NCBI RefSeq assembly: GCF_901538265.1
Contig: NZ_LR593886.1
Location: 9,941,738-10,005,737 of the forward strand
Source: Gemmata massiliana
Lineage (GTDB): Bacteria; Planctomycetota; Planctomycetia; Gemmatales; Gemmataceae
Length of the DNA: 64,000 nucleotides
Direction: 5' to 3'
Positions 30,247 through 60,954 of this stretch are shown here, in pieces (within the stretch, counting starts at the first letter, position 1; the number at the start of each line of letters is the position of its first letter). The notes beneath the pieces are model-generated. The model was not told the origin of the DNA, did not search any database, and saw only the letters and a program-made list of their open reading frames with translations. The position numbers and the translations under genes were made by a program.

Positions 30247-32262
30247 CTAGAACTCGGTGAACCCACCGCTGTCACCGCCGAGCCGGTCGAGTTCGTGACC
30301 GCGCCCGTTCGAGTGCCCGCTGCTCATCGCGCGAGCCACTGCGGGGCGCGGCTTTTTGCTTGCAGCTTTCGCGCGGGGAGCCGGGGCACGTGCGGCTGTG
30401 CGCCCGTCGTTGCCGAGTTGGAACCGCGCGACGAGGTCGCGGAGCTGACCCGCCTGGTCCGTCAGAGCCTGAGCGGTGGCCGAGACTTCTTCGGTTTGTG
30501 AGGCATTTCGTTGGGTGACGGAGTCCATCTGTGAGACGGCCTTGTTGACCTGCTCGATGCCCACGGACTGCTCCTTGCCCGCCGCCGCGATCTCCGTGAT
30601 GATGTCCGTCACGCGCTTCACACTGGTCACGATGTCCCCAAGTGTGGACCCGGACTGGTTCACCAGCTCCGTGCCCGCGTCCACCTTCTTCACCGAGTCC
30701 TCGATCAGGGCCTTGATCTCCTTCGCGGACGTGGCACTGCGCTGTGCGAGGTTTCGGACTTCGGAGGCAACGACGGCGAACCCCCGACCTTGTTCGCCGG
30801 CCCGGGCCGCTTCCACCGCCGCGTTCAGGGCCAACAGGTTCGTCTGGAACGCGATCTCGTCAATGGTCGTGATGATGTCCGCGATCTTCTTCGAGGACTG
30901 GTTGATCTCGCTCATCGCCTCGACCGCGTTGCCCACCACGCGCCCCCCCTTCTCCGCGATGTCACGCGACGTGCTCGCCAACTGGCGCGCCTGTTGCGCA
31001 CTGTCCGAGTTCTGGCGCACCGTCGCCGTGATTTCTTCCAGCGTGCTCGCCGTCTCCTCCAGGCTACTCGCCTGCTCCTGAGCACCCGTCGAGATCTCGT
31101 CGCTGGCGTTAGATAGTTGCGAGGACGCTTCAGCGAGTTGTTCAGAGACTTCGCGCACGCCTTCCAGCGCCGTCCGCACCGAGGCTACAGCCGCGTTCAG
31201 GGCCACAGCCATCTGACCAACGGTATCGTCCCCCAAATCGGGCACTTCCTGGGTGAAGTTCCCCGCGGCCAGCGCGCTCACGGTAGCCGTGATCGTAGCG
31301 ACCTTCTGCTGCAGTTCTGCGGCTTGGGCGCGTTCGAGTTCGGCCTGCGCCCGGTTAGCAGCGGCCTCGCGCTCGACGCGCTCGCGCGTTTCCGTGGCCT
31401 CGCGCTCGACGCGCAAGCGGTCCTTTTCGACCTGGGCGCGTTCGGCTTCCTTGGCGGCCACGAGCGCCGCGATCGCCGTGTTCAGGGCCGCGGCCAGGCG
31501 CCCGACCTCGTCCTGGGAATCGATCTCGGCACGCTTCGACAGATCACCCTTCGCCACACCTTCGAGTATGGCCACCGTCTGCCCGAGTGGTCCGGTGACC
31601 GATGCGGATAAAACCAATCCGAGCCCAACCGCTACGAACACGGTCCCAGCGATGGTGCCCCAGAGCGTGCCCCGGGCGGACGCATACGTGCCGTTGGCTC
31701 GGGTTTCTTCATCTCGGGCGATCTCCTCCTGGACGCCGATGAGATCCTGCAGCACCTCGTTCATCCGGTTGGCCGTCTTCAGCTCCCGGAAAGCCGCGTC
31801 CGCCGCCTTGTCGTACTCGCGCCGGTCGGCCAACCCCATGATCTCCTCGTGGTCGCGTTTCCACTCGGTCAGTGCGGTTTGGAGCTGCTTCCAAATGACC
31901 GCTTCCTTCTCGATCATCGGAAGGGAGCCGTACCCCTTGAGCCCCTCGTTCGTCGACGCCCACCCGATACCCACGTGCTCGCGTGCGGTCCGCGCGCCCT
32001 GTTCGTCGCCCTTCAGACCGTATGCGATCATCGTGCGCTCGCCCCGCTGAATCCGGAGGGCGCCGGTCCGGGCCTTGTCGAGGTTGATAATGCTCGGGAC
32101 GAGGTTGGTGGCGGCGTTCACCTGGTACGTGCGGATCTCACTAAGTGCCCCGAGCGCTTCGTACCCAAGAAACGCACACCCCGACGCGATCAACAGGAAC
32201 CCGGCGATCAATCGGGGGCCGATACGGACCTTCATGAGCACGGCAATAACGGACTGAAGCAT
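30247..32262 (-). CDS. Methyl-accepting chemotaxis protein, HAMP-coiled coil-HAMP type
   Basis: 671 residues. Transmembrane helices near 17-38 and 207-230 flank a helical periplasmic sensor of about 165 residues. A HAMP domain ([16 protein letters not shown], then DSQDEVGRL) is followed by a long Glu/Arg-rich coiled coil (about 285-335) and a second HAMP-like unit. The signalling hub [20 protein letters not shown] and the glutamate-rich methylation helices are intact. The chain ends GGFTEF; the last five residues fit the x-[FYWH]-x-x-[FYWH] C-terminal CheR/CheB docking pentapeptide. Divergent from cheW, closely related to the MCP at 33302. Ligand unknown. Confidence 0.94.
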
Positions 32263-32765: not shown

Positions 32766-33251
32766 GTGGGCTCACTCGACTCACACGACAAAACCGAGCT
32801 CGTGGGCCACGGGAGCCAGTTCCTGGCGTTCCGATTGGGCGACGAAGAGTACGGGGTCGAGATCCTGCGCGTGCAGGAGATCAAGGGGTACTCGCGCATC
32901 ACCCCGCTACCCAACACCCCACCCGAGATGAAGGGCGTCATGAACCTTCGCGGGGCCGTGGTCCCGATCATGGACCTGCGTACCCGCCTGGGCATGCGCG
33001 AAGCCGAGTACACCGTGTTCACGGTCATCATCGTCGTCACCGTGGGCACCAAGATCGTGGGCCTGGTCGTGGACGCGGTGTCCGACGTGCTCAACGTGGA
33101 GCCCGACGAGAAGCTCCCGGCCCCGGACCTGGGCGCGGGCGTCGACACCTCGTTCCTCAACGGGATCGCACGCACCGGCGAGCGCCTCGTCTCGCTCCTC
33201 AACATCGACAAACTCGTCGGCAACGCCAACGAACCTTCACTCTCCGTGTAA
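32766..33251 (+). CDS. cheW: Chemotaxis coupling protein CheW
   Basis: 161 residues from a GTG at 32766, chosen because GAGGAGAGGA lies just upstream. The CheW fold is clear: [21 protein letters not shown], a loop [20 protein letters not shown], and DLRTRLG with [12 protein letters not shown]. It couples chemoreceptors to the CheA kinase at the cytoplasmic face of the membrane. It lies 50 bases upstream of a chemoreceptor on the same strand and probably shares its transcript. No cheA, cheR or cheB is in the window. Confidence 0.95.
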
Positions 33252-33301: not shown

Positions 33302-35314
33302 ATGCCCGAATCGTTGCTTACCGCACTGATGAAATTCCGCATCGGTCCCCGACTCATCGCCGGCTTCCTGGCGCTCGCGGCCGGGGCCGCGTTCCTCGGG
33401 TACACGGCCCTGGGCGCGCTCAGCCAGATCCGCGAGTTCCAGATGAACGCGGCGACCGATCTCGTCCCGGGCCTTGTCAACCTCGACAAGATCCGGGCCG
33501 GCGCCCTCCAATCGCAGCGCGCGGAGCGCGGGCTCGTGCTGTTCGGCCAGGTCGGGGACGAGCCGAACTACCGGTCCGTTCGCGCGAACCTCGATGCCGG
33601 GTTGAAGTCGATCGAGGAGGGACTTAAGGGATACGGCTCGAGCCCGATGACACCTAAAGAGGCGACGAACTGGAAAGACCTCCAAGCCGCATTCGCGGAT
33701 TGGAAGAGGGATCAGGAAGACGTCGTCGCCTGCTCCGAGCGGCGCGAGTTCAAGAAAGCTCAGGACGCGGTCGCGCGCGAACTCAAGACCGCGGCCCGGC
33801 TGAACCAGACGCTGCAGGAACAAATCAAGATCCAAGAAGAAACCGCCAAAGAACAAGAGACCCAGGCCAACAGCACGTATGCGTCGGCGCGATTCACGCT
33901 CTTCACGACCATCGCCGTGTGCGTCGTCGTTTCGATCGGTCTCGGGTTGGTTTTGTCCGCGTCGGTCACCGGCCCACTGGGGAAAACCGTGAGCGTTCTT
34001 GAAGGCGTGGCGAAGGGTGACCTGTCGAAGCGCGCTGAGATCGATTCCCAGGACGAGGTCGGGCGCCTGGCCGCCGCCCTCAACACCGCGATTGCGGCGC
34101 TCGTGGCCGCCAAGGAAGCCGAACACGCCCAGGTTGAAAAAGATCGCCTGCGCGCCGAGCGCGAGGCCGCAGAGGTTCGGGAGCGCGCCGAGCGCGAGGC
34201 CGCAGAAACGCGAAAGCGCGCCGAGCACGAACTGGCCCGCGCCACCGAACTACAGCGCAAAATAGGCTCGGTCACGACCTCGGTAACGGCCCTGGCTGCG
34301 GGCGACTTCACACAAGAGGTTCCGAACCTGGGAACCGACGAAGTCGGCCAGATGGCCTCGGCCCTCAACAAGGCCGTGGTTTCCGTGCGGACGGCCCTCG
34401 AAGGGGTGCGCGAAGTATCCGAGCAACTCGCGGATGCCTCGGGTCAACTGTCCTCGGCGAGCGACGAGATCTCGACAGGCGCGCAGGAGCAAGCGTCGAG
34501 CCTCGAGGAGACGGCGAGCACGCTCGAGGAGATCACGGCGACGGTGCGCCAGAACTCGGACAGCGCGCAACAGGCCCGGCAGTTGGCGAGCACGTCGCGT
34601 GACATTGCGGAGAAGGGGGGCCGCGTGGTGGGCAACGCAGTCGAGGCGATGAGCGAGATCAACCAGTCCTCGAAGAAGATCGCGGACATCATCACGACCA
34701 TTGATGAGATCGCGTTCCAGACGAACCTGTTGGCGCTGAACGCGGCGGTGGAGGCGGCACGGGCCGGGGAGCAGGGGCGCGGGTTCGCGGTCGTCGCGTC
34801 CGAAGTGCGCAACCTCGCCCAGCGCTCCGCGACCGCAGCGAAGGAGATCAAGTCATTGATTGAGGATTCGGTGAAGAAGGTGGACGCGGGCACCGAACTC
34901 GTGAACCAGTCCGGTTCGACGCTGGGTGACATTGTGACCAGTGTGAAGCGGGTGACGGACATCATCACCGAGATCGCGGCCGCGGGTAAGGAGCAGTCCA
35001 CCGGCATCGAGCAGGTCAACAAGGCCGTCTCACAGATGGACTCCGTCACCCAGCGCAACGCCTCACAGACCGAAGAGATGTCCGCGACGGCGCAAACGCT
35101 GACGGACCAGGCAAGTCAACTCCGCGACCTCATCGCGCGGTTCAAACTCAGTGAGCACGGGCACCCTACCCCGCGCACCACACACCGGACCAAAGCCCCG
35201 GCGACCAAACCCCGCCCCGCCGTCGCCAAGGCTCTCAAGAGCGGCCACGCCAACGGCAACGGGCGCAAGCACGAACTCGATCAGCTCGGTGGCGACGGGT
35301 TCACCGAGTTCTAA
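33302..35314 (+). CDS. Methyl-accepting chemotaxis protein, HAMP-coiled coil-HAMP type
   Basis: 670 residues starting at ATG 33302; the frame is open back to 32750 but that part lies in cheW. It is a paralogue of the divergent receptor at 30247: two membrane helices (about 17-40 and 205-230), helical periplasmic sensor, HAMP, a charged coiled coil ([20 protein letters not shown]), a second HAMP and the canonical hub [20 protein letters not shown]. It ends GDGFTEF, again a candidate CheR/CheB docking pentapeptide (GFTEF). AGGA lies about nine bases upstream. The following hairpin terminates the cheW-MCP transcript. Confidence 0.94.
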
Positions 35315-35324
35315 ACGCGCACTC

Positions 35325-35372: not shown

Positions 35373-35450
35373 ATCAACGGACAGATTGTAACACCTCATC
35401 GAAATGATGTGGGACGCACTGTAATTCGATTTCTTATCCCAGAAATGACG

Positions 35451-35476
35451 CAAGCCCTGGAAGGTTCCAGGGCTTG
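35451..35476 (-). terminator. Hairpin downstream of the tRNA-Ala fragment
   Basis: Twelve-base perfect arms (35451-35462 and 35465-35476) with a two-base loop. On the minus strand it begins six bases after the end of the tRNA fragment, where a tRNA terminator would lie. This supports the sequence left of 35482 as the original downstream flank of a tRNA gene. Confidence 0.5.
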
Positions 35477-35481
35477 TTCGA

Positions 35482-35526
35482 GGTGGAGGTGAGGAGAGTT
35501 GAACTCCTGACCTCTTGAATGCCATT
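35482..35526 (-). tRNA. 3' fragment of tRNA-Ala(GGC), probable left attachment site of the integrated element
   Basis: Read on the minus strand: anticodon loop ATGGCAT (anticodon GGC), 3' anticodon stem TCAAG, variable AGGTC, T-arm AGGAG-TTCAACT-CTCCT, acceptor CACCTCC and ACC. The required 5' half (GGAGGTG acceptor, D-arm, CTTGA stem) is missing; identity to a tRNA stops in the anticodon stem, where tyrosine integrases commonly cross over. Since the 3' flank stays with the host in such events, the element lies to the right. The intact tRNA should be at the other end, beyond the window. The function as an att site is an inference. Confidence 0.65.
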
Positions 35527-35804
35527 CTTGATATTACGTACACTATAATTGGCGTAATTCTTTACCGGCAGGCTGTTTACAACAAATCTCGCGTAAAGTT
35601 AAGAAAAAGAGCACAACGGCAAAATGTCAGGCATTTTGGGTATCCCACTCCTGAGATCGGGGTAGTTACCCGCCTCGACGAGCGTTCACTTCTTCGGCTT
35701 CTTGCCGCTCTCTTCCTCCCACGGCGCCGTGGGCACGTCCAGCCCCTTCTTCGCCTCGGTTTGGATCAGACCGAGCAAGTACCAGAGCACCGGCTGACGT
35801 GCCG
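35527..35804. other. AT-rich boundary region inside the presumed left end
   Basis: The stretch to about 35650 is markedly AT-rich and carries several copies of TTTAC/GTAAA, which could be arm-type integrase sites. On the minus strand from about 35797 to 35690, a 33-codon stretch beginning with GTG reads VLWYLLGLIQTEAKKGLDV and then runs on to a lysine-rich end (EEESGKKPKK). This looks like a protein remnant or micro-protein. No complete gene is called. Confidence 0.35.
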
Positions 35805-36035
35805 ATGTCCGAATGCGACTGCCCGAAGTGCCGTCGGTTCGAGGCGCCGACCGACGCCGTGGGCGTGCTGGTCAGGGTCGATGTCTGAGTCGAGTTCGCG
35901 GAGCCATACCACGGGTTCAAGGGTGGCACGGTCATTGCAATCAATCGCGGTATCCACAGCCCGGTCGCCGTCGTAGAGGTATACCCGGGCCAGAAGACCG
36001 ATACGCTCTGCCGCCAGTTACACATTGTCGTCTAA
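35805..36035 (+). pseudogene. Small phage-like gene interrupted by an in-frame TGA
   Basis: ATG at 35805 opens a frame reading MSECDCPKCRRFEAP, then GVLVRVDV, a TGA at 35886-35888, and continues in the same frame with VEFAEPYHGFKGGTVIAI through RGIHSPVAVVEVYPG to TAA at 36033. Both sides have clear protein character, so this is one gene of about 76 codons with a nonsense mutation. The CxCPxC-like start suggests a small metal-binding protein. Readthrough is possible but unproven; decay is the simplest reading. Confidence 0.6.
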
Positions 36036-36172
36036 CCCCGAACGCGGCGGGCGGGACCGGGGTGGTTATTCCCCTCACGACCACCACGGGCGAGCACCCC
36101 AGCTCGACGGCACTACCCGAATGCCGTTCTCCGCCCGCCGTCATTTTCTAACTCCAAGCACACAGGTGCCCA

Positions 36173-36469
36173 ATGTTGTTTCCGATCAAGCATGCCACCT
36201 GGCAACAACTCCGCGTCCTGGCCCGCGCAAAGGGCAAACCCGTCCTCGGGCGCGATATCCGGATCGTGCCGACACGCTTCACGAAGTCGGGCGAGTTCCT
36301 CGACGAACTGATTGAGGCGGGCTTAATCGAACGAGCCGAGGGGAAGCCCATTGCAGGGAACGAACCGGAGCAGTTCCGCGTGCGATACACGCTCACGGAG
36401 AAGGGCCGCCACGCCGCGGAGTACGGCGAGTACGAGCGCGTGCGCCAGCCCCAACAGACTGCCGGCTGA
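36173..36469 (+). CDS. Small winged-helix-like protein
   Basis: 98 residues with the look of a winged-helix DNA-binding fold: SGEFLDELIEAGLIERAEG, followed by FRVRYTLTEKGRHAAEYG, which matches the recognition helix and wing of MarR/phage-type regulators. AGGTG lies just upstream of the ATG. It lies between the tRNA fragment and the chemoreceptor. It could be a regulator of the element, or a phage accessory protein; the family is not certain. Confidence 0.6.
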   Translation: MLFPIKHATWQQLRVLARAKGKPVLGRDIRIVPTRFTKSGEFLDELIEAGLIERAEGKPIAGNEPEQFRVRYTLTEKGRHAAEYGEYERVRQPQQTAG

Positions 36470-36698
36470 CGCAAGATGCGTCCTCGGTTGCCCTTACGAA
36501 GAAAGGCAGCCGGGGACGCTGCTTATCTCATACGAGATCGCGTTGGATGACGCACTCAGATTTTCCAGCCGGTGGGTGCCCGATCTAAATCCAATGGTCA
36601 ATAGGAATTATATTTCTCACGCAGAATCGAGCCAGTAGGCGCTGGGCGTCCTTGCTCAATGTCGATCAATTTGTTGGAACGGAGGAATAATTGGCGGC

Positions 36699-36727
36699 TT
36701 GATCTCAGATTCGTGCTAGAAAATAAT
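36699..36727 (+). promoter_or_regulatory. Candidate sigma70-type promoter of the third chemoreceptor
   Basis: TTGATC at 36699-36704, a 17-base spacer and AATAAT at 36722-36727, about 40 bases before the chemoreceptor ATG. The surrounding 36470-36765 contains no gene and is AT-rich at its right half. Planctomycete promoter consensus is poorly defined, so this is tentative. Confidence 0.4.
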
Positions 36728-36765
36728 GCCCCCCGCCGTGCTGCACACGTTAGGACAGCCTTCCC

Positions 36766-39084
36766 ATGTCGAATCAACTCGCCGATAAGTTCAATAACCT
36801 CGGGGTCGGCACGCGGCTTATTGGTGGGTTTCTTATGCTCGCTGTCGCGTGTGCGGCCGTTGGGCTCTGGGGCCTTCGGTCCATGACCCAAATCAATAGT
36901 GCCTTGGACAATGCTAACGGGAACTTGCTCCCGTCGGTCCGCGCCCTGACCGATCTGCGGGGCAATTTGAGCACCGTCCAGCGCGCCGAGCGCTCGATCC
37001 TCATGGCCACGCGCCGTAAGGACGAGGCCGTGAGGAACCAGGCCACGGGTGCTCAAGAAACCGCGATGGTCAAGGCCCGCGAAGCGGTCAAGCGGTACGA
37101 GGCGCTCCCGATGATCGAGAAGGAGAAGAAGCTCTGGGCCGAGTTCCTGCCGTCTATGGAAGCGTTCCTCCGGGACCACGAGGCGACGATGGGGGCGCTC
37201 AAAGGCGGGGATCTGGAGCGCGCGGAACAAGCGTGCTTCAACTCGGTGCCCAACGCGCTCAAGATGAACGCGCAACTGAACGAGTTGTGCGACCTGCAGG
37301 GCGAGATCGGGGAGGGCGACGCCAAGGACGCCCGGGAGCAATACGCCTCGGCCCGGACGACCATGTTCGTGGTCATCGGGGGGGCGGCGCTCCTGGCCGT
37401 AGGGCTCGGAATCTTCTTCCGAAACCTGATTGTGAACCCGCTGAACGCGACCGTCAAGGTGCTGCAGGCCGTAGCCTCGGGTGATCTGACCCAGAAAGCG
37501 ACGGTGACCTCGACCGACGAATTCGGGCAAATGGGTGCAGCCCTCAACGCCACGGTTCAGGGCATCCACACCGCGCTCCAACAGGACAAAGTGAACTGGG
37601 AAGTGGTCGGCCAGCAGCGCGCACAGAACGCGGACTTCGCGGCCCAAATCGCGGCCATCGGCAAGGCCCAGGCGGTAATCGAGTTCAAGCTGGACGGGAC
37701 CGTCGTGAGCGCCAACGAGAACTTTCAGCGCGCGCTGGGGTACACCCTGCCCGAGATCCAGGGGCGCCATCACAGCATGTTCGTCGAGCCGGCCTACGCA
37801 TCGAGTTCCGAGTACCGCGACTTCTGGAGCCGACTCAACCGCGGAGAGCCTATCGCGGCCGAGTTCAAGCGCATCGGCAAGGGGGGCAAGGAGATCTGGA
37901 TCCAGGCCTCGTACAACCCGATCCCGGATCTCCACGGCAAACCGTTCAAGGTGGTCAAGTACGCGAACGATATCACCGCGACCAAGGACATGGAACTGAA
38001 GGTGAGAGAGGACGCGGCCGCGCTGAAGCAGAAGGTCGCGGCCATCATGACCTCGGTGAGCGCGATAGCGGCCGGTGACTTCACCCAGCAGGCCCCGGAT
38101 CTGGGCACCGATGAGGTGGGGCAGATGGCCGCGGGACTCAACAAGGCCGTGATTTCCGTGCGGACCGCCTTGGAAGGCGTGCGCGAGGTGTCCGAGCAAC
38201 TCGCGGATGCCTCGGGGCAACTGTCCGCGGCCAGCGACGAGATCTCGACGGGTGCTCAAGAGCAAGCATCGAGCCTCGAAGAAACGGCGAGCACTTTGGA
38301 AGAGATCACGGCAACGGTGAAGCAGAACTCCGATAGCGCGCAACAGGCGCGCCAGTTGGCGAGCACGTCGCGGGACATCGCCGAGAAGGGCGGTCAGGTC
38401 GTGGGCAACGCCGTGGACGCGATGAGTGAGATCAATCAGTCGTCGAGGAAGATCGCCGACATCATCACGACAATCGACGAGATCGCGTTCCAGACCAACC
38501 TGCTCGCCCTCAACGCCGCCGTGGAAGCCGCTCGCGCCGGGGAGCAAGGCCGCGGGTTCGCGGTCGTCGCGAGCGAAGTGCGCAATCTCGCTCAACGCTC
38601 CGCCACGTCCGCGAAGGAGATCAAGTCGCTGATCGAGGATTCGGTCAAGAAGGTAGACGCGGGGACCGAACTGGTCAATCAGTCCGGGTCCACGCTGGGT
38701 GACATTGTAACGTCGGTGAAGCGCGTGACGGACATCATCACCGAGATCGCTGCCGCGGGTAAGGAGCAGTCCGTGGGCATCGAGCAGGTAAACAAGGCCG
38801 TATCGCAAATGGACGCCGTGACCCAGAAGAACGCCTCACAGACCGAGGAGATGTCGGCCACGGCTCAAACGCTTACCGATCAGGCGGCCCAGCTCCGCGA
38901 CCTCGTCGCACGGTTCAAGCTCAGCGAATCCGGCCACACGGCCTCGCGCCCTGCGGCCTGGAGCAAAACCCCGGCGACGAAACCTCGACCCGCGGTTGCC
39001 AAAGCGTTGAAGAACGGGCACGCTAACGGGCGCAAACACGAACTCGATCAACTCGGCGGCGACGGCGGGTTCACCGAGTTCTAA
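36766..39084 (+). CDS. PAS-containing methyl-accepting chemotaxis protein, apparently inside the mobile element
   Basis: 772 residues. Two membrane helices (about 19-40 and 200-222) flank a helical periplasmic domain; a HAMP unit follows ([18 protein letters not shown]). Where the other two receptors have a charged coiled coil, this one has a PAS domain (about 300-415; [20 protein letters not shown], ending [13 protein letters not shown]), then a second HAMP, the hub [20 protein letters not shown] and the tail GGFTEF. The PAS suggests sensing of redox state or a cytoplasmic ligand (heme/FAD not predictable). The signalling half is almost the same as in the chromosomal receptors. It lies right of the tRNA fragment, so it may be phage cargo. 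Confidence 0.93.
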
Positions 39085-39096
39085 ATGCCAACACAC

Positions 39097-39143
39097 CAAA
39101 ACAACTCGGCCCGCGGGGAATTCCCGCGGGCCGAGTTGTTTTG
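39097..39143. terminator. 21-base-arm inverted repeat, bidirectional terminator
   Basis: Arms 39097-39117 and 39123-39143 are perfect complements with a five-base loop. The right arm ends GTTGTTTTG, a usable U-rich end for the plus strand; the left begins CAAAAC. It terminates the chemoreceptor (stop 39084) and the phage late genes coming the other way (last stop 39156). Confidence 0.85.
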
Positions 39144-39155
39144 CCTAGTTGTCGC

Positions 39156-39353
39156 TTACTTGCTGGTGTCAACCGCCGACTCCTTCACGTCGCTCGTGAA
39201 GTCCGGCAGGGGCGGGAGCTTCACGCCGAATAAACTGGCAATCGCCGGCCCCCACGTCGCGAGCAGCTTGAGGAGCTTACCGTCCCCGAGCGCGGTGAAT
39301 TGCCGACCGTCGCCACCGGCCACGTTCACCACGTTGAAATGGAAGTTGAGCAT
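39156..39353 (-). CDS. Phage micro-protein, last gene of the late cassette
   Basis: 65 residues, with a hydrophobic central segment (LLKLLATWGPAIASLFGV) and an acidic, polar tail. ATG 39353 overlaps the previous stop (TAATG). It has no known family. Being the last gene of a cassette of tiny proteins downstream of an exported protease, it could be a membrane-active lysis accessory, but this is a guess. Confidence 0.6.
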   Translation of the reverse strand: MLNFHFNVVNVAGGDGRQFTALGDGKLLKLLATWGPAIASLFGVKLPPLPDFTSDVKESAVDTSK

Positions 39354-39574: not shown

Positions 39575-39578
39575 GGGG

Positions 39579-39965: not shown

Positions 39966-41048
39966 TCACTTGAGAACGGTCACCACCGGGCCGCGCGTCG
40001 GCATGTCCACCGGTTCCCAAGCGTTGATCGGGCCAATGCCCGCTTCTGGGATCTCAATCGGGGTCCACAGCTCGGTCGTTTGGGCCGGGCGGTACTTGCG
40101 GGCAACGTCGGCCGCGCAACCCCACACGCGAGCCTTTTGCCCCTTGGCCGTCGTGCAGCACACACAGCTAATCAGCTCGCCCGTGTCGTCGCGGAAGATG
40201 CCGCCCCCGCTGTCGCCGCTCGAGACGGACAACGACATTTGGAGCTGACCGTTCGAGTCCTGCGCGAACGTGATCTCGCCGTCCTCGCGGTTCCCGGGGT
40301 TGTCCACCCCGTAACCCTTGTGCCAAATCTTGGTCCCGACCGCAGGGTTACTCGCCGCGATCTCGGCGAACGGCAGGTCCGCGAGCGTTGCGTCCTCGGT
40401 CGTGAGCCACGCGCAGTCCGGCGTCTCGTAGATGCTCCCCACCTTCACCGCGAGCTTTCGGCCATCGGGCAACACCATTGAGCCCTTCGCCCCGACGCCC
40501 ATGTGGGTGACACAGTGCGCCGCGGTGAGCACGTCCCATTTCCCGTCAGCTCTGCGCGGCCCGATCACCGTGGCCGTGCAACCCGCGTTGCCGAATTGGA
40601 TCTTGCCCAGCGCGCCAGCCGGGTTCGCCTTGGGCTTCACCGGCGGTTGTGGGGTCGGGGGCACGATCGGGGGCGCCTTGTCGCAACACGATTCGATCTC
40701 CACCGACATCGCTTGCTCATCCACCGAAATCGCACCGTCGGCCCCGGTGGTGATGACTAGCGCCTCGATCTGGTAGGTACCGGGCGGGGCCGCGAACTCG
40801 AGAATGCCGCGCGGGGTCGTCGCGCGCTGCACGTCCTGGCTCGGGTACACGCGCCAGATGATCCCGGCCTTGGCGTCCACGCCCGTCGCCTTCACGCGCA
40901 CGAGCTGGTACGGCTTGTATTTCGTCGTCCCCTCGAGCGCGAGCTTTTGCGGGAGCGGCTCGGGAACGAGCATCCGGTCCGGGGCGGCCGACACGACGGG
41001 CACCGCGAGGAGCAGCGCCAGGAGCACGAACAGGCGAACGCGGAACAT
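39966..41048 (-). CDS. Exported trypsin-like serine protease in the phage late region
   Basis: 360 residues from ATG 41048. A signal peptide (LFVLLALLLAVPVVSAA) is followed by a beta-sandwich-like N-terminal segment (35-115), a proline linker (127-142) and a chymotrypsin-fold domain. The triad is His178 (TAAHC), Asp211 (DCAW) and Ser280 (SSGDSGGG). Paired cysteines suggest disulfides outside the cytoplasm. It sits between phage tail genes and four micro-proteins, in its own transcription unit (see 41088-41173). In a phage late region it could act in host envelope breakdown, virion processing or release. Longer starts upstream lack a signal peptide. The protease call is firm; the phage role is inferred. 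Confidence 0.87.
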   Translation of the reverse strand: MFRVRLFVLLALLLAVPVVSAAPDRMLVPEPLPQKLALEGTTKYKPYQLVRVKATGVDAKAGIIWRVYPSQDVQRATTPRGILEFAAPPGTYQIEALVITTGADGAISVDEQAMSVEIESCCDKAPPIVPPTPQPPVKPKANPAGALGKIQFGNAGCTATVIGPRRADGKWDVLTAAHCVTHMGVGAKGSMVLPDGRKLAVKVGSIYETPDCAWLTTEDATLADLPFAEIAASNPAVGTKIWHKGYGVDNPGNREDGEITFAQDSNGQLQMSLSVSSGDSGGGIFRDDTGELISCVCCTTAKGQKARVWGCAADVARKYRPAQTTELWTPIEIPEAGIGPINAWEPVDMPTRGPVVTVLK

Positions 41049-51370: not shown

Positions 51371-51769
51371 TTACCTCCGGGGGTTGAGAACTTTGGGCGC
51401 CGGCCCCGGACCGTCCGGGGCGGGGGGAAGTTGCTTCGGCTTCCGGTCCGGGCGCGGGATGTACCGCACCTTCGCACCGGGCAGGGCCGCCAGTTGCGCG
51501 GCGAGCGTCTTCATGCTGACGCGCTGGGGGCCGAAGCGCGGGATCAGGTGTTTCGGTTCGACCTTCGACCCCATCGCCCGCGCCGTCGCGACGCCCGCGA
51601 GCACGGTACCGGCCTCGAGCCGGTCCACCGGGAACCCGTGCCGGTCCCGGTACGCCTTCCAGAACGCGAACTCCGCGGCCGACATCGCGAGCACGTCCGC
51701 GAGCGACTTGTGCAGGGCGAGGCACAGGGCGCCGACGAACGCTAACTCGGCGTCGTCGGCGACGGCCCC
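51371..51769 (-). CDS. Tail assembly chaperone T-like extension, expressed by -1 frameshift
   Basis: The frame is open from the TGA at 51779 down to a TAA at 51371. It has no good independent start upstream of the chaperone stop (a GTG at 51694 is the first), but it overlaps the G-like gene, whose sequence contains GGGAAAG at 51769-51775. A -1 shift there fuses 108 residues of G with 132 residues here (GAVADDAELAFVGALCLALH, then FAFWKAYRDRHGFPV). This is the standard GT organisation of siphophage tails; the fusion protein helps to load the tail tube around the tape measure. Confidence 0.75.
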   Translation of the reverse strand, partial: GAVADDAELAFVGALCLALHKSLADVLAMSAAEFAFWKAYRDRHGFPVDRLEAGTVLAGVATARAMGSKVEPKHLIPRFGPQRVSMKTLAAQLAALPGAKVRYIPRPDRKPKQLPPAPDGPGPAPKVLNPRR

Positions 51770-52092
51770 TTTCCCGGCTCACCGGCCCCCTGACCGTCGA
51801 TCCCGTTGCGCCGGGCGATCTCCTGCGCGAGCGCGTCCACGAGCCCGACGCCGAATTGGTTCAGGTCCGCGGGTTCGAGGATCGGCGAACCGCTTTCGTC
51901 GCACACGGCGAACAGAACCAACCGCGCCTGAAGCGCGAGCCCGCTGCCCGGCTCTTGGGCGTGCTCGCGGCCCCACGCGAACAGCTCGGAGCGCTCCCCG
52001 AACGAGAGCGGCCGGAGCAGGAGCGTGAGCCCGTCGAACTCGAACGGCACCGGCTTCCCCCGGGCGCCCTTCAACACATCGTCCTTCGTCAT
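51742..52092 (-). CDS. Tail assembly chaperone, G-like
   Basis: 116 residues, acidic helical protein (FEFDGLTLLLRPLSFGERSE, then LFAVCDESGSPILEPADLNQ) just upstream of the tape measure, the position and size of gpG-like chaperones. It contains a lambda-type slippery heptamer near its 3' end; normal termination gives this protein and a minority frameshift yields the GT fusion. Short gap after the tail tube gene. Confidence 0.8.
   Translation of the reverse strand: MTKDDVLKGARGKPVPFEFDGLTLLLRPLSFGERSELFAWGREHAQEPGSGLALQARLVLFAVCDESGSPILEPADLNQFGVGLVDALAQEIARRNGIDGQGAGEPGKGPSPTTPS
51769..51775 (-). promoter_or_regulatory. Programmed -1 ribosomal frameshift site GGGAAAG
   Basis: On the minus strand the zero frame reads G GGA AAG, exactly an X XXY YYZ slippery heptamer, and the same heptamer that phage lambda uses between G and T. 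The downstream -1 frame stays open for 132 codons. The zero-frame stop is nine codons further on. No pseudoknot was sought. Confidence 0.8.
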
Positions 52093-52129
52093 GATCGCCC
52101 CTGTGTGTGTGGTTCCGGACCGGGGCGGG

Positions 52130-52555
52130 CTACGCCCCGGCCACGGTGACCATCGTCTCGAACTCGGTGATCTTGTCGGCCTCGAGCGGGTCCGTCTTGT
52201 TGGCCGTGATGATGCCCGGGACGGTGATCTCGGTATCGCCGTCGTCGTCCGGGATCGTGATCCGGAAGTTGTTCGTCTGGCGCGCCGAGCGGATCACTTC
52301 CAGGCGTGCGAACTGCGCGTGGGTGAACTGCTGCTTGATGCTGAACTCGCCCCCGTCCTTCAGCGCCGCGATCTTCTTGATGACCGCTTGGGGCAGGTCC
52401 AGGCGCTTGCTCTCGACGATCCCGGTCGTTTGGCTCGGGACGCCCAACGAGGTAATCATGGGCACCTCGACGTAGCTCCCGGACGCGGACCCGTTGCCCG
52501 CGTCGTCGATCTCGCACGTGCCCCCGAAGCCGATTGATTCGTCGCCGACTGCCAT
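52130..52555 (-). CDS. Phage tail tube protein (major tail protein)
   Basis: 141 residues, beta-rich, with the order and size of a siphophage tail tube monomer (ESKRLDLPQAVIKKIAALKD, then NFRITIPDDDGDTEITVPG). It starts 10 bases after the DUF3168-like gene and precedes the chaperones. Position gives the assignment. Confidence 0.75.
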   Translation of the reverse strand: MAVGDESIGFGGTCEIDDAGNGSASGSYVEVPMITSLGVPSQTTGIVESKRLDLPQAVIKKIAALKDGGEFSIKQQFTHAQFARLEVIRSARQTNNFRITIPDDDGDTEITVPGIITANKTDPLEADKITEFETMVTVAGA

Positions 52556-52565
52556 AGTTGAGCCC

Positions 52566-52997
52566 TCACGCTGGCGGTTTGAACCACAACCGAAACGTTT
52601 GCCCGCTCACCTGCCGGGGCTGGGCGTCGTCGGTCACCAGCTCGTCCCCGTCGCCCTGGGTGAAGCACCCCTGAACCCCGTTGGCCCGGTCGCGCCACGG
52701 CGTGACCCCGGCCGCCTTGTTCCCGCACAGCGCCGTTACGACGGCGCTCAAGATCGCGTCGGCCTCGGCCTGGGTGTCCGCGTAGCACTCGACCCGCACG
52801 TCGTGCGGTTGGAGCGCCGATCGCGCGCCGAGGGTCGTCACGTCCGCCCCGCCGGTGCGGAAGTACACGACGTAAGCCCCGGGCGCGTCCTGGGTCGGCT
52901 TCGACGGGTACACCTTCGTACCCACCAGCGCCCCGACCGCGTCGTCGGTGAGTAGCCGTTGGGCGATCGCCTCGCCCCAGTTCGCCGGTACCGCCAC
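52566..52997 (-). CDS. Phage tail terminator/completion protein (DUF3168-like)
   Basis: 143 residues from a GTG after GGGGG. Features of DUF3168-like proteins: IAQRLLTDDAVGALVGTKVY, then PGAYVVYFRTGG and HDVRVECYADTQAEADAI. Such proteins close the tail end that joins the head. It lies between the small membrane-tail gene and the tail tube gene. Confidence 0.72.
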   Translation of the reverse strand: MAVPANWGEAIAQRLLTDDAVGALVGTKVYPSKPTQDAPGAYVVYFRTGGADVTTLGARSALQPHDVRVECYADTQAEADAILSAVVTALCGNKAAGVTPWRDRANGVQGCFTQGDGDELVTDDAQPRQVSGQTFRLWFKPPA

Positions 52998-53013
52998 GTT
53001 ACCCCCGGAACAT

Positions 53014-53355
53014 CTAGCGCCACGCGGGCCACGAGTACGCGAGCGCCGCCAGTGCGAGCGTCAGCCCGAAGAGCGCCACCGCGCACCCGTCGTTGCCTTC
53101 CGGCGGCCGAACCGCCGGCGCCGCGACCGGTTCGGCCGGGCCGTCGATCTTGACGAGCCGCAACGGGGCCGGGCGATCTTCCCAGAGGATGAGCGGGGAC
53201 TCTTTGAGCGTCGCCGCGAGAGTAACCAGCCCCACCCGGCCCGTATCGGTGTCGCAGTAAACGACGTCTTCGATCTCGACGCCGTTCGCGTCGAACACAC
53301 GGGACGGCCAGACGTCTTTGATCGTGTCCTCGTTACGGCAGTCGTATACCGGCAT
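53014..53355 (-). CDS. Phage small protein with C-terminal membrane segment
   Basis: 113 residues from ATG 53355, which overlaps the previous stop (TGATG). The N-terminal 75 residues are soluble (MPVYDCRNEDTIKDVWPSRV, then TLKESPLILWEDRP) and the last 20 form a hydrophobic helix (LFGLTLALAALAYSWPAW). A membrane-anchored protein among head-tail genes is unusual. The longer frame in another start is a shadow. Function unknown. Confidence 0.65.
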   Translation of the reverse strand: MPVYDCRNEDTIKDVWPSRVFDANGVEIEDVVYCDTDTGRVGLVTLAATLKESPLILWEDRPAPLRLVKIDGPAEPVAAPAVRPPEGNDGCAVALFGLTLALAALAYSWPAWR

Positions 53356-53954
53356 CACGTGCCCCCGAGCTTCGACCGGATCTTCGCGCCCTGGCGGTCG
53401 ATTTCCTTTTGGGTCGCGATCCCCATCGCCTTCAGCGCCGCGGCCCCGGCCGGTCCCTTGACCGTTTCCCACGCGCGCTTGCGGTACGGGTTCTTCTTCG
53501 CCCCCGGGTGCTTGCCCGTGGTCTGCCCGGTCCGCACGATCGCCTTGCGGCGCTTCGTCGCGTCGCGCCCGAGGGACTCGCCCTTGCCGAGCGCGTGGGG
53601 CCGGGTGCCGAGCTGAACCAGGTGGTCGTAAAACGCGGGCACCACGCGCTGGGCCTTCTTGCGGCCCCGAACCACCACCATTTTGTCGATCTTCTTCTTG
53701 GCCCCTTGCACCGCGAAACTGGCCGTCGTGCCCTGTTTGGTGCCCTTCGCGGCCCGAACCCCTTGGGCCTGTTTCAGCGCGCCCGAACCCGGTCGCTTCG
53801 GTGCCGCGCTCCGGGCCGCGTTCTTCAAGAGCTTCCCCGCGGCCTTGGCTCCCGCGAGTGTGATCCCGCGCTGCCGGGCCGTGCTGATAACGGCCTCGAT
53901 CCCGCTCAGATCGACCTTCACCCGCACCTGGGGGCCGATCGGCTTCTTGCTCAT
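53355..53954 (-). CDS. Phage HK97 gp10-like tail-completion protein
   Basis: 199 residues. The start (ATG 53954) overlaps the preceding stop (ATGA). It begins VRVKVDLSGIEAVISTARQR, then is lysine/arginine-rich with LKNAARSAAPKRPGSGALKQ; the LKNAA(R/K)xxAP pattern is characteristic of HK97 gp10-like proteins, which join neck to tail. A basic insertion and tail are longer than usual. Confidence 0.78.
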   Translation of the reverse strand: MSKKPIGPQVRVKVDLSGIEAVISTARQRGITLAGAKAAGKLLKNAARSAAPKRPGSGALKQAQGVRAAKGTKQGTTASFAVQGAKKKIDKMVVVRGRKKAQRVVPAFYDHLVQLGTRPHALGKGESLGRDATKRRKAIVRTGQTTGKHPGAKKNPYRKRAWETVKGPAGAAALKAMGIATQKEIDRQGAKIRSKLGGT

Positions 53955-54307
53955 TGCGGCACGCCCTGGGTGACCCGCTCTACGGTGACGACCGTCTCGC
54001 CCTTCTCCCGGGCCACGCCGACGACCGCGAACACCTCGCCGGTGATCTTCTTCCGGATGCGGTCGGACGCCGTGACCGCGATCGACCGGCCCTTGATCCG
54101 GAGCTTCAGCCCGCCGGTTGATTGGCGGATGCCCTGCGCGATGTCCTCGCCCGAGGTGATCGCGTCCCGGGCCGCGAAATACTCGTTGGTGCCCGGGGCC
54201 GGGTCGGGCCACGATTCGGGCTCCGCGCCGTTCGGCCCCTGCGTACCGAGCACGCGGGGGAGAACGACGATGCGCAGGTCGAACTGCCCGGCCCGTGAGC
54301 GCGCCAT
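53951..54307 (-). CDS. Phage head closure protein (head-tail adaptor)
   Basis: 118 residues (FDLRIVVLPRV, then TNEYFAARDAI and SDRIRKKITGEVFAVVGV), with the small beta-barrel pattern of SPP1 gp16-like head-completion proteins. ATG 54307 overlaps the preceding stop (TAATG). Located between connector genes and the gp10-like gene, as expected. Confidence 0.75.
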   Translation of the reverse strand: MARSRAGQFDLRIVVLPRVLGTQGPNGAEPESWPDPAPGTNEYFAARDAITSGEDIAQGIRQSTGGLKLRIKGRSIAVTASDRIRKKITGEVFAVVGVAREKGETVVTVERVTQGVPQ

Positions 54308-54807
54308 TACGTCCCCGCGACGATCTGGTAATTGAGGGCCTGGGTGCCGGTCCCGGTCAGGTCGAACACCTTGACCGTGCTCGACACCGCGGTGCCCGCG
54401 GCCGCCAGGTTGAACAGCACCTTCTGCCCCGGTTGGAGCACGTGCGAGAACGCGGCGCCGAGCCCCGTGTACCCGTTCGCGGCCCCCTTCGCGATCGTGA
54501 TCGGGTTCGCGTTGGTCGCGGGGTTCTCGAACAGGATCGCCCGGGGCTTGAGCCCGTCGAGGCTCACCGCCGCGCCGTTGATCCCGACGAGTGCCGTCAG
54601 GTCGAGTGACCCGGCCCCGGCCGTCAGCGCCTTCGAGCCGTTCGCGTGGGCCGTGACGTTGGGGGTGCCGGACCCGGTGAGACCGACCTCGCTGCTCAGC
54701 TTGTTGAACGTGAGGCTGTTCTTCGAGCTGTCGAGGAACGCCGCGTTCGCGGGCGGAACCTCGACCACGTCCAACTTGATCCCGACCGTCGCGCGCGTGA
54801 CGCTCAT
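54307..54807 (-). CDS. Phage structural protein of unknown function (decoration-like)
   Basis: 166 residues, Thr/Gly/Ala-rich, beta-type (VTAHANGSKALTAGAGSLDL, then LDGLKPRAILFENPATNANP). It is coupled to the connector gene by an ATGA overlap. A head decoration or tail accessory role would fit composition and position. No family is recognised. Confidence 0.68.
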   Translation of the reverse strand: MSVTRATVGIKLDVVEVPPANAAFLDSSKNSLTFNKLSSEVGLTGSGTPNVTAHANGSKALTAGAGSLDLTALVGINGAAVSLDGLKPRAILFENPATNANPITIAKGAANGYTGLGAAFSHVLQPGQKVLFNLAAAGTAVSSTVKVFDLTGTGTQALNYQIVAGT

Positions 54808-55394
54808 GAGTACGCTCCGTTCCAGAGTAAATCGAGCTGTGCCTTGGCCGCCGGCGGAAGCGCCTTCGCGTTACCCGCGTCGCCCCGGTTCTCGTCCCAA
54901 TTCCCGATCGCGAGCAACATCGCGACCGTCACGCCCGCCGGGACGTTTTGGAGCGGGGCGCCCGCGGTGAACTCGATCGTGACCGGCGCGACCTTGCCGC
55001 GCTTCAGCTCGGGCCAGTACCCATCCGGGGCCGGGCACACGAGGGGCGGGCTGTGGTCGAGCCAGGTCTGATAGTCCCCGGCGTCGAACGTCCGCTCGGT
55101 ACCGGCCGCGTCGAAGTACCGGAGCGCGTCCACCGACGCGACCGGCTCGACCGGGAGCCGGATCGCCCCCGCGATGTCGCTCGTGCATTCCGTCGGCCAG
55201 GCCGGGAGGGTGAGCCGCACCGTCTGGGTGACCCAGCGCTTGCCCGTGTACTGCTCCGACAGCTCTCGGGCCGCCCGGATCCACCCCGTAATGAGGTCGT
55301 CTTCCTCGTCGTGATCGATCCGCAGGTGCGCCTTGGCCCGTGCCAGGGACACGGGTTCGACGGCCGGCGGGGTGATCGTGACGAGTCCGAACAC
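54804..55394 (-). CDS. Phage head-tail connector (gp6-like)
   Basis: 196 residues from a GTG. VSLARAKAHLRIDHDEEDDL followed by ARELSEQYTGKRWV is the classic gp6-like connector start (LeuxxxKxHLR, then xxxExxTGRxl). Forms the ring under the portal. Seven bases after the preceding gene's stop. Confidence 0.88.
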   Translation of the reverse strand: MFGLVTITPPAVEPVSLARAKAHLRIDHDEEDDLITGWIRAARELSEQYTGKRWVTQTVRLTLPAWPTECTSDIAGAIRLPVEPVASVDALRYFDAAGTERTFDAGDYQTWLDHSPPLVCPAPDGYWPELKRGKVAPVTIEFTAGAPLQNVPAGVTVAMLLAIGNWDENRGDAGNAKALPPAAKAQLDLLWNGAYS

Positions 55395-56264: not shown

Positions 56265-57662
56265 TTACGCCGCGAGCTGCAGCCCGACCACCGGACCGGT
56301 GTTGGCGGTGTTGCGCGGGTCCGTGACCGTGTGGTTGTTGATCGCGACGCGCTGGGTGCCGAGGATCGTCATCAGCCCCTTGGTGAAGTCGTCGTTCTCG
56401 AACCCGACTTCCACGGTCCGGCCCCGGCGGTTCCCGAGCTTCGAGCTGAGGCGCAGGTCACCGAAGATGGCCCCGATCTGGGTCGCGGTCGGGGCCGCGG
56501 CCATCACGTTGACCCAGGTAACCGGGTACCCGAGGAGCATCATTTCCCCGCCCCGCGCGACGTCGCTCGGGAGCGCCCCGCCCGCGGCGAGTTGCAGGCG
56601 CTGGACCGCGTTCGCCCAGAACGCCTTGTGCATGAACCAGCGCGGTTGGGCGCTCGGGTAGTTCGGGTACTTCGCGACCACCGCGTTGAAGTCGTCGAGC
56701 GTGAGCGTGGCCACCGTGTTGCGCCCGACCCCCGCTTGCGCGCGGGCCGCGGCCGACGCCAAGATCTTCGTGACGAGGCCGACGATCCCGCCGTATGCTG
56801 CCGTGCCGTCCCCGTTGAACCCGGCCGCGTCCTCGGCGTAAGCGAACGCTTCCGCCAGGCACATCGCGACCTTGTCGCCCAGGTCGATCACGGAGTCCTC
56901 GTCGAGAACCCGGGTCATCTTGTTCATCGCCTTGAGTTCCTTGGCGATGAGCGCGATCAGGTCCCACGCCGGATCGGTCGAGCCGGGCTTGTTGCCCTCC
57001 ACGGTCCAGTACGCGGTCATGCTCCCGGTCCACCGGGGCGAGTCCTTGGTGCCGCTCGACATGGGCACGTTCTCGGCGAACTGGCGGAACACGCCGTACA
57101 CGAGCGCCAGCTCCTGCACCGCGTAGTCCAGTTCGTTCGGGACGAAGTACCCGGCGCCCTTGTTGTCGAACGTGTTGAGCACGGCCGAGGGGCCGGTATC
57201 GAGTGCCCCGCGCCGGATCTCGACCCCGTTCGCGGCGCACCACTTCTGCGCCTCTTCGCTCCCGTACAGCGTGGCCGCGGCCCACATCCCCGCGCGCTCG
57301 GCCCGTTCCACCGCATCGGCACCCTTGAACGCGCGCAGCGGGCCGTGGTTCCGGGGGCGTGCGGCGGGGCGGTTCGGGTTGGTTGAGGCCGGGCCGCCCG
57401 CGTCGGGACGGAACCGGGCGTGCCCCGCGGCGTTCAAGCGGGTCGCGTCGGCCGCGATCCGGGCCGCGGACTCGGCGCGTTCCAGACGGGTGATTTCGGC
57501 CTGTTCCGCCGCGACCGCGGTCTTGTACGAGTCGTTGGCCGCGGTCCAACTCGCTTCCCACTCGGGCGTGGAAACGAAGTCGGCGGCCTGCGCTTCGTTC
57601 GCCAGGCGGGTGACGTCGGCGCCGGCCTTTTCACGAGCGGCGCGCAGTTCGGCGAGGGTCAT
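56265..57662 (-). CDS. Phage major capsid protein, HK97 fold
   Basis: 465 residues. An N-terminal helical region (to about 130: LAELRAAREKAGADVTRLAN, with a Pro-rich linker) is a delta/scaffold-like domain to be removed by the S49 protease; the mature part includes DTGPSAVLNTFDNKGAGYFV, FRQFAENVPMSSGTKDSPRW, LDDFNAVVAKYPNYP and GAIFGDLRLSSKLGNRRG. The latter patterns, with NxNxHxV near the end, are typical of HK97-type capsids. Gene order behind portal and protease supports it strongly. Confidence 0.9.
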   Translation of the reverse strand: MTLAELRAAREKAGADVTRLANEAQAADFVSTPEWEASWTAANDSYKTAVAAEQAEITRLERAESAARIAADATRLNAAGHARFRPDAGGPASTNPNRPAARPRNHGPLRAFKGADAVERAERAGMWAAATLYGSEEAQKWCAANGVEIRRGALDTGPSAVLNTFDNKGAGYFVPNELDYAVQELALVYGVFRQFAENVPMSSGTKDSPRWTGSMTAYWTVEGNKPGSTDPAWDLIALIAKELKAMNKMTRVLDEDSVIDLGDKVAMCLAEAFAYAEDAAGFNGDGTAAYGGIVGLVTKILASAAARAQAGVGRNTVATLTLDDFNAVVAKYPNYPSAQPRWFMHKAFWANAVQRLQLAAGGALPSDVARGGEMMLLGYPVTWVNVMAAAPTATQIGAIFGDLRLSSKLGNRRGRTVEVGFENDDFTKGLMTILGTQRVAINNHTVTDPRNTANTGPVVGLQLAA

Positions 57663-60779: not shown

Positions 60780-60954
60780 CCGCGCCCGGAGGAGTCGGTT
60801 CAGCAGCAAGGGTGCGCTCCCGGAGGTAGTAGGTGCCGAGCAACAAGAGCCCGCAGACGATCAGGGATATGGGCCAGTACATCGCGGCCAGGCCGCCGAG
60901 CACGAGCGCCACGCCGAGCACCGCGAGCAGATCCCACAAGTCGATTACGAGCAC
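60745..60954 (-). CDS. Small phage membrane protein between terminase and portal
   Basis: 69 residues from a GTG. Two hydrophobic helices (LAVLGVALVLGGLAAMY and ISLIVCGLLLLGTYY) precede a polar, Glu/Pro-rich tail. It lies nine bases after the terminase gene. Membrane micro-proteins among packaging genes are unusual; a holin, superinfection exclusion or assembly role is possible. Function unknown. Confidence 0.65.
   Translation of the reverse strand: MLVIDLWDLLAVLGVALVLGGLAAMYWPISLIVCGLLLLGTYYLRERTLAAEPTPPGADEPGNHGTASE

What the first reader, a model, noticed from the sequence alone, without database searches (positions are those of the whole stretch)
35482..39143. tRNA-Ala scar places a chemoreceptor inside a prophage
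The minus-strand tRNA-Ala(GGC) 3' fragment (anticodon loop to ACC) followed by a hairpin on its left is a host tRNA 3' end; its 5' side on the right is foreign. So the integrated element begins at 35.5 kb and would include the PAS chemoreceptor at 36766-39084, whose signalling half is nearly the same as the two chromosomal receptors. A phage that carries a chemoreceptor able to feed into the host chemotaxis array would be very unusual.
Basis: partly seen in the sequence, partly recalled or inferred. Interest (0 to 1): 0.75.

Follow-up and report, generated by a model that had tools for sequence, protein, structure and literature searches.

The report
Chemoreceptor carried by a Gemmata prophage
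A virus lying dormant in the chromosome of a Gemmata bacterium carries, in a swappable cargo slot near one of its ends, an intact gene for the kind of sensor that steers bacterial swimming, so the virus may add a steering sensor to its host, which has yet to be tested.

Summary
A 63-bp exact repeat (window 35465-35527) recurs 42.85 kb to the right, inside an intact tRNA-Ala(GGC) beyond the window, next to a tyrosine integrase. Between the repeats lies an HK97-type tailed prophage. A relative, Gemmata sp. IIL30, has the empty site. The chemoreceptor (36766-39084, 772 aa) is inside: a sister prophage with a 98% identical integrase has matching phage DNA on both sides of it, but a different 2.4-kb cassette between. 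Another related prophage has leucine-rich-repeat genes at that end. So it is a moron in a variable cargo slot. The gene is intact and followed by a strong hairpin; its branch omega (about 0.20) resembles that of its chromosomal paralogue. Its signalling tip is identical to 11 of 12 chromosomal receptors compared. No closer copy than 87% (sensor half) was found in this genome, so it is not a recent local copy. Most likely it is lysogenic-conversion cargo adding a receptor to the host array; that function is inferred, not shown. It is rare but not unique: in 3 of 6 receptor-bearing IMG/VR loci examined, phage hallmark genes lie on both sides, and one paper mentions a comparable case in one sentence.

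The parts
35465..35527 (-). attL: 63-bp core (terminator side plus tRNA-Ala(GGC) 3' end, anticodon loop to acceptor), left end of the prophage
   Evidence: exact copy at 78318-78380 (off-window), overlapping the intact tRNA-Ala
36173..36469 (+). small phage gene (98 aa) on the outer side of the receptor
   Evidence: 93% aa to the sister prophage G117; DNA 36172-36488 matches G117 258-573 at 86%; not found in the IIL30 prophage; no Pfam or PHROG hit
36489..39161 (+). cargo slot: 2.67-kb cassette absent from the sister prophage, which has a different 2.41-kb cassette at 574-2986
36699..36727 (+). possible sigma-70-like promoter of the receptor (TTGATC-17-AATAAT), in a stretch that also aligns with the 1.10-Mb chromosomal paralogue
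   Evidence: 2 sites found, 1.0 with sd 1.0 expected: weak; shared DNA starts at 36697
36766..39084 (+). chemoreceptor (MCP), 772 aa: TM - 4-helix-bundle - TM - HAMP - PAS - MCPsignal, C-terminus GFTEF
39097..39143 (.). hairpin between the receptor and the convergent phage genes (21-bp stem, -43.7 kcal/mol), terminator-like
   Evidence: shuffles mean -17.4, z -9.2, 0 of 200 as low; not listed by the consensus scan
39156..39353 (-). small phage gene on the inner side of the receptor
   Evidence: 73% aa in G117, 57% in the IIL30 prophage
39966..41048 (-). phage trypsin-like peptidase gene, conserved in the sister prophages
   Evidence: PF13365; 88-93% aa
49510..51369 (-). tail tape measure protein
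   Evidence: PHROG 9483, 1.6e-20
51371..55394 (-). tail and connector genes (tail protein, assembly chaperone, major tail protein, tail terminator, neck, head-tail adaptor)
56265..57662 (-). major capsid protein
   Evidence: PHROG 10, 4.7e-39
58175..59092 (-). head maturation protease
   Evidence: PHROG 53, 1.1e-87
59082..60809 (-). portal protein
   Evidence: PHROG 12, 8.5e-90
60964..62646 (-). terminase large subunit
   Evidence: PHROG 9, 7.2e-103
62834..63307 (-). terminase small subunit
   Evidence: PHROG 83, 3.5e-18
30247..32262 (-). host chromosomal chemoreceptor 1 (outside the prophage)
   Evidence: similar receptors at the same locus in G012
32766..33251 (+). host cheW (outside the prophage)
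   Evidence: PF01584, 3.4e-37
33302..35314 (+). host chromosomal chemoreceptor 2 (outside the prophage)
   Evidence: similar receptors at the same locus in G012

Best explanation
A temperate siphovirus of Gemmata, integrated by a tyrosine integrase into the 3' end of tRNA-Ala(GGC), carries a complete chemoreceptor gene as a moron in a variable cargo slot between attL and the late genes. SHOWN: element borders, empty site in a relative, phage genes, receptor position, other genes in the slot of sister phages, intact reading frame, low dN/dS. INFERRED: the receptor is transcribed in the lysogen, inserts into the membrane, and joins the host CheA/CheW arrays through its near-identical signalling hairpin. 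It adds a sensory input from an extracellular four-helix-bundle domain and a cytoplasmic PAS domain. This is lysogenic conversion: the phage gains if its host navigates or competes better. The gene belongs to a Gemmata chromosomal receptor family but is not a recent copy from this strain.
For: 63-bp exact att repeats 42,853 bp apart, one overlapping an intact tRNA-Ala. Tyrosine integrase beside it (PF00589, 3.3e-12; PHROG 1). HK97-type head and tail gene set. Empty site in Gemmata sp. IIL30. Sister prophage G117, integrase 98% identical, matches 36172-36488 and 39162-39588 on the two sides of the receptor and carries a DUF1559/N-methylation pseudopilin-like gene and others between. The IIL30 sister prophage has LRR genes at that end, inside its own 44-bp repeats. 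Selection: dN 0.067, dS 0.617 to the nearest paralogue; polarised branch omega 0.197 (56 nonsynonymous, 94 synonymous) against 0.211 (35, 55) for that paralogue. Signalling core without gaps in 31 of 31 receptors; tip 42 of 42 residues identical to 11 of 12 own chromosomal receptors and 41 of 42 to the twelfth. Four methylation-motif matches. C-terminal F-x-[DE]-F ending in 30 of 31 receptors, this one included. The host has CheA-type (4 matches), CheR (7) and flagellin (2) genes.
Against: No expression, induction or behavioural data. Part of the phage-branch divergence may predate capture, so selection inside the phage is not proved. The promoter match is within chance. The host already has dozens of receptors (33 matches to the sensor half), so one more may matter little. 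No close orthologue in another phage was found: a whole-protein scan of IMG/VR gave none, and the sister phages lack it. The best full-length hit outside this genome among the 120 listed is 83%; that list is not exhaustive, since the 88% paralogue of this very genome is not in it. The outer small phage gene is not found in the IIL30 prophage, so the slot's outer border is defined by one sister phage only.
Confidence: 0.75

Rival explanations
1. Neutral passenger: the receptor was picked up by illegitimate recombination in the slot and is tolerated because it fits the packaging limit, with no benefit to phage or host.
For: The sister phage carries an unrelated cassette of similar length in the slot (2.41 kb against 2.67 kb). 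The host is already rich in receptors.
Against: Intact 772-aa frame, strong hairpin after the gene, branch omega 0.197 much like the chromosomal paralogue, no sign of decay.
Confidence: 0.2
2. The receptor is a host gene and the true phage end lies at about 39.15 kb; the scar belongs to another, older element.
For: The cassette's base composition is host-like (62% G+C against 68% in the late genes). Other host receptors lie just outside attL. The relative G012 also has an integrase remnant at this tRNA.
Against: DNA conserved in the sister prophage lies outside the receptor (36172-36488, 86%). No 14-mer of the core lies between 35.53 kb and the right end. The gene's sensor half groups with the 1.10-Mb copy; the two flanking receptors have no PAS and resemble it closely only in the signalling half.
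Confidence: 0.03
3. Gene-conversion reservoir: the phage copy mainly exchanges sequence with host receptors and diversifies the host repertoire.
For: Signalling halves within one genome are very alike, and the signalling tree is mostly unresolved and places the phage copy elsewhere than the sensor tree does, as repeated exchange would give.
Against: Strong conservation alone also gives an unresolved tree, and the bootstrap of that tree had not settled; no conversion tract was looked for or demonstrated.
Confidence: 0.05

Closest known systems
Prophage morons / lysogenic-conversion genes (general class, recalled)
   Same: Host-like gene near one end, opposite strand to the late genes, hairpin after the gene, different genes there in sister phages
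   Different: Cargo is a whole transmembrane chemoreceptor rather than a toxin, surface modifier or defence gene
[quoted passage not shown]
   Same: A prophage reported to carry chemotaxis genes, read as a benefit to the host
   Different: One sentence on a single-cell genome; no att sites, empty site or cargo slot given in the section read; different bacterium
Receptor-bearing IMG/VR contigs L101, L110, L099
   Same: Receptor gene lies between phage hallmark genes
   Different: Different phages; signalling domains 52-56% identical
Chromosomal 4HB-HAMP-PAS receptors of Gemmata (for example the copy at C1:1.10 Mb)
   Same: Aligned over the whole length, 88.5% aa identity, same kind of C-terminus
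   Different: On the chromosome outside this prophage; its own surroundings were not examined for mobile elements
Aer aerotaxis receptors and MmoS (FAD-PAS; cofactor recalled)
   Same: Closest solved PAS domains by sequence (3ewk, 8dik, 31cj)
   Different: The tryptophan in the GEPWSG segment of Aer and in the same column of MmoS is isoleucine here

Membership tests
Integrated temperate tailed phage (prophage) | Direct repeats at both ends, one restoring the target tRNA | tested here: met
   63-bp exact repeat; intact tRNA-Ala at the right end
Integrated temperate tailed phage (prophage) | Integrase next to an attachment site | tested here: met
   PF00589 and PHROG 1 protein at 76861-78183 (window numbering), 134 bases from the core
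Integrated temperate tailed phage (prophage) | Packaging, head and tail gene set | tested here: met
Integrated temperate tailed phage (prophage) | Empty site in a relative | tested here: met
   Gemmata sp. IIL30, L040
Integrated temperate tailed phage (prophage) | Excision and infectious particles | not testable with these tools
   needs induction and sequencing
Methyl-accepting chemotaxis protein | MCPsignal domain with conserved hairpin tip | tested here: met
   PF00015 1.4e-55; tip identical to 11 of 12 own chromosomal receptors compared
Methyl-accepting chemotaxis protein | Two transmembrane helices around a sensor domain, then HAMP | tested here: met
   19-residue windows of high hydropathy starting at residues 12-22 and 194-208; 4HB_MCP_1 11-193 and HAMP 217-268
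Methyl-accepting chemotaxis protein | Methylation sites | tested here: met
   four matches to the methylation motif (motif recalled)
Methyl-accepting chemotaxis protein | Incorporation into CheA/CheW arrays | not testable with these tools
   inferred from sequence only
Prophage moron | Present in one phage, absent at the same position in close relatives | tested here: met
   different cassette in G117; LRR genes at that end of the IIL30 prophage
Prophage moron | Own promoter and terminator | tested here: inconclusive
   strong hairpin; promoter match within chance
Prophage moron | Expression in the lysogen | not testable with these tools
   needs RNA data
Aer-type FAD aerotaxis receptor | Flavin-associated tryptophan of the PAS domain (role recalled) | tested here: not met
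   isoleucine in the aligned column; no tryptophan there in 18 of 18 chromosomal PAS receptors that matched the scanned motif; the 1.10-Mb copy and 11 others did not match it

The most novel reading that the evidence does not exclude
Gemmata phages of this family use an exchangeable slot next to attL to re-equip the lysogen's outward-facing functions (a steering receptor here, a pseudopilin-like protein and LRR proteins in relatives). The chemoreceptor actively redirects the lysogen's swimming in the phage's interest, for example towards conditions that favour growth or new hosts.
Probability: 0.2. Interest if true: 0.8.

Novelty: new variant of a known kind. Interest (0 to 1): 0.52.

Why it matters
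Lysogenic conversion is known for toxins, surface changes and defence (recalled). A phage that supplies a chemoreceptor would let a virus change where its host swims. This case has exact borders, an empty site in a relative and sister phages with other genes in the slot. It therefore allows a direct test of whether a phage gene rewires bacterial navigation, in a planctomycete whose genome has flagellin, CheA-type and CheR genes.

Tried and rejected
Recent duplication of the flanking host receptors: rejected; only the signalling halves are closely alike, the flanking receptors lack the PAS domain, and the sensor half groups with the copy at 1.10 Mb. Recent capture from this strain: rejected; the nearest copy in this genome is 87% in the sensor half, with dS 0.617 overall, slightly above four sister pairs between this genome and IIL30 (0.334, 0.558, 0.560, 0.572). 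I first compared with one pair only (0.33), which overstated the contrast: the divergence is of the between-species order, not clearly older. Phage end at 39.15 kb: rejected by the sister phage. FliA-like promoter scan upstream of the receptors (consensus recalled): best matches 7-10 of 16 everywhere, uninformative. Whole-protein scan of IMG/VR: four pattern matches, no relative; the receptor search in the three sister records was negative (the tool warns that this alone proves nothing), as was tblastn. INPHARED: 20 records matched. By label and length, the 14 filed under Salmonella or Escherichia look like host contigs or short pieces; 6 are 'Bacteriophage sp.' from human faeces, of which I fetched three (marked UNVERIFIED, no annotation) without scanning their flanks for phage genes. 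Of 21 receptor loci put into, one (L076) yielded no row because no ORF passed the filter.

Papers: ten searches, judged from listings except seven papers looked into: passages in PMC6558430, PMC12649213, PMC5567305, PMC10232697, PMC9769780 and PMC3203893, and passages plus section 16 of PMC6581674. Of these, only PMC6581674 reports chemotaxis genes on a prophage. PMC10232697 cites a filamentous phage that enhances host motility and chemotaxis (Yu 2015); PMC9769780 reports an inovirus that lowers host chemotaxis genes; PMC3203893 notes a weak likeness of a tape measure protein to MCPs. PMC4817708 (Yu 2015) is not held and was not read. I cannot say that phage-borne receptors are undescribed beyond these searches.
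Full report
OBSERVATION. The window is C1:9941738-10005737 of a 10,135,216-bp single-contig genome. Coordinates above 64,000 below continue the window numbering. The tRNA-Ala 3' fragment at 35482-35527 is part of a 63-bp exact repeat (35465-35527 and 78318-78380). The right copy overlaps an intact tRNA-Ala(GGC), minus strand, 78335-78409 (L005:6073-6147). A 33-mer of the fragment with up to 3 mismatches has 2 matches in the whole genome and 0 for the reversed control. No 14-mer of the core, on either strand, occurs elsewhere in 1-92262. The core-to-core distance is 42,853 bp.

THE ELEMENT. A tyrosine integrase gene (76861-78183, minus) ends 134 bases before the right core (PF00589; PHROG integrase). 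The late genes run from about 63.3 to 49.5 kb on the minus strand: small and large terminase, portal, protease, major capsid, adaptor, neck, tail terminator, major tail protein, assembly chaperone, tape measure. On the early side, of 10 proteins scanned two had a PHROG family with a function label: the integrase and a protein at 73209-74270 (AAA_24 in Pfam; weak Sak4-like match). The gene list comes from a simple ORF/codon-usage script, not a published gene finder, and not every listed gene was scanned.

EMPTY SITE. Genome G009 is Gemmata sp. IIL30, by matching contig length and position (G009:C2 and scaffold HG799463.1). In it the right-flank gene (LPG synthase-like), the intact tRNA-Ala and the left flank are contiguous. 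Window 35358-35527 aligns with L040:6713-6553 at 81%, and the right flank from 78298 aligns at 93%. IIL30 lacks the receptor1-cheW-receptor2 block (about 30282-35357) but keeps what looks by eye like the last codons of a receptor there.

THE RECEPTOR IS INSIDE THE PHAGE. The sister prophage G117 (IMGVR_UViG_2671180531_000013, 43,615 bp, integrase 98% aa) matches 36172-36488 at 258-573 (86%) and 39162-39588 at 2987-3407 (87%), with different DNA between. There it has a 194-aa exported-looking protein, a DUF1559/N-methylation (pseudopilin-like) protein and a 149-aa exported-looking protein; only the second has a Pfam hit. The IIL30 sister prophage (G009:C1; apparently the same phage as IMGVR_UViG_2600255093_000004, with the same alignment figures over most of the shared part) has two LRR proteins left of the matching point, inside 44-bp direct repeats that resemble a tRNA 3' end, 43.5 kb apart. 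No tRNA was called at either repeat. The small outer gene (36173-36469) is not found in the IIL30 prophage, so the outer border of the slot rests on G117 alone. The receptor is not found in G117, G118, G119 or the IIL30 prophage.

THE RECEPTOR. 772 aa: 4HB_MCP_1, HAMP, PAS, MCPsignal, two hydrophobic stretches, four methylation-motif matches, ending GFTEF. An F-x-[DE]-F ending is present in 30 of 31 family members collected; the exception is one reading of an IIL30 gene. That such an ending can tether CheR is recalled, not tested. The signalling core aligns without gaps in 31 of 31 receptors; the 42-residue tip is identical to 11 of 12 own chromosomal receptors and differs at one residue from the twelfth. 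These 12 are the ones I had fetched; the genome has at least 33 matches to the sensor half. The host has 4 CheA-type, 7 CheR and 2 flagellin matches. The nearest solved PAS domains are MmoS (listed as 'Sensor protein'; the name is recalled) and Aer, but the tryptophan of GEPWSG is isoleucine here, so an FAD cofactor is not claimed.

ORIGIN AND SELECTION. In the sensor tree (21 rows) the phage copy is sister to the chromosomal copy at 1.10 Mb (support 99/98); the signalling tree (31 rows) is mostly unresolved and its bootstrap had not settled. Identity to that copy is 88.5% aa and 85.0% nt, dN 0.067, dS 0.617. Four sister pairs between this genome and IIL30 have dS 0.334, 0.558, 0.560 and 0.572. 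So the phage copy differs from the nearest gene in this strain about as much as receptors of different Gemmata species differ: a donor in another Gemmata, or a long stay in the phage, fits; a recent local copy does not. Polarised with two outgroups, the phage branch has 56 nonsynonymous and 94 synonymous changes (omega about 0.20) and the chromosomal branch 35 and 55 (0.21). Part of the phage branch may predate capture. The cassette is 62.0% G+C against 68.2% in the late genes, but the early phage region (62.5%) and the host (62.5-62.9%) are similar to it, so composition alone says little. A 21-bp hairpin (-43.7 kcal/mol; shuffles mean -17.4, 0 of 200 as low) follows the gene; the promoter match is weak.

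HOW RARE. With a signalling-domain alignment, 293 IMG/VR stretches matched a pattern and 207 encode a relative; 79 loci were kept, among 2.9 million contigs by the tool's description. I scanned chosen flanking genes in 6 of the 79 (L098, L099, L101, L104, L106, L110), picked from the best-scoring ones. Phage hallmark genes flank the receptor on both sides in 3 of 6 (L101: capsid | minor head, portal, terminase; L110: tail fibre | capsid, portal, terminase; L099: portal, terminase | replication initiation), and on one side in 2 (L104, where the contig ends in the receptor and one neighbour was scanned; L106). In L098, where two proteins were scanned, there was none. The other 73 were not examined. 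So phage-borne receptor genes recur in other phages. PHROG 8572 matches the signalling domain of this receptor and of that in L101 and carries no function label. In print I found one sentence about a prophage with two energy-chemotaxis genes (PMC6581674, section 16), citing work on a Pseudoalteromonas phage that I could not read.

VERDICT. The best account is a moron in an exchangeable slot that supplies the lysogen with an additional chemoreceptor. Placement is close to certain; expression, array entry and benefit are inferred.

Noticed in passing
L041:4742-4906 (G012): Remnant of a related integrase N-terminus beside the same tRNA-Ala in another Gemmata: the site seems to be reused.
   Followed up: partly
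L040:6480-6960 (Gemmata sp. IIL30): The host receptor1-cheW-receptor2 block is missing at the empty site, with a receptor C-terminus-like remnant left.
   Followed up: partly
L063:8926 and L065:12438: The IIL30 sister prophage lies between two 44-bp tRNA 3'-end-like repeats, but no intact tRNA was called at either end; a second element may adjoin.
   Followed up: partly
L066:574-2986: The sister prophage slot holds a DUF1559/N-methylation pseudopilin-like gene (PF07596, PF07963).
   Followed up: partly
window 39966-41048 and 44869-45462: Trypsin-like peptidase and family 2 glycosyltransferase genes in the phage late region, conserved in sister prophages.
   Followed up: no
window 57844-58080: Small predicted gene of low G+C (0.52) between capsid and protease genes, without a match in the sister prophages.
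   Followed up: no
L005:2690-2776 (inside the prophage): ARAGORN calls a tRNA of unknown type with a four-base anticodon; Rfam does not support it, so it is probably a false call.
   Followed up: no
L098-L176: 207 IMG/VR stretches encode MCP signalling domains; 3 of 6 loci examined lie between phage hallmark genes. A systematic survey is worthwhile.
   Followed up: partly
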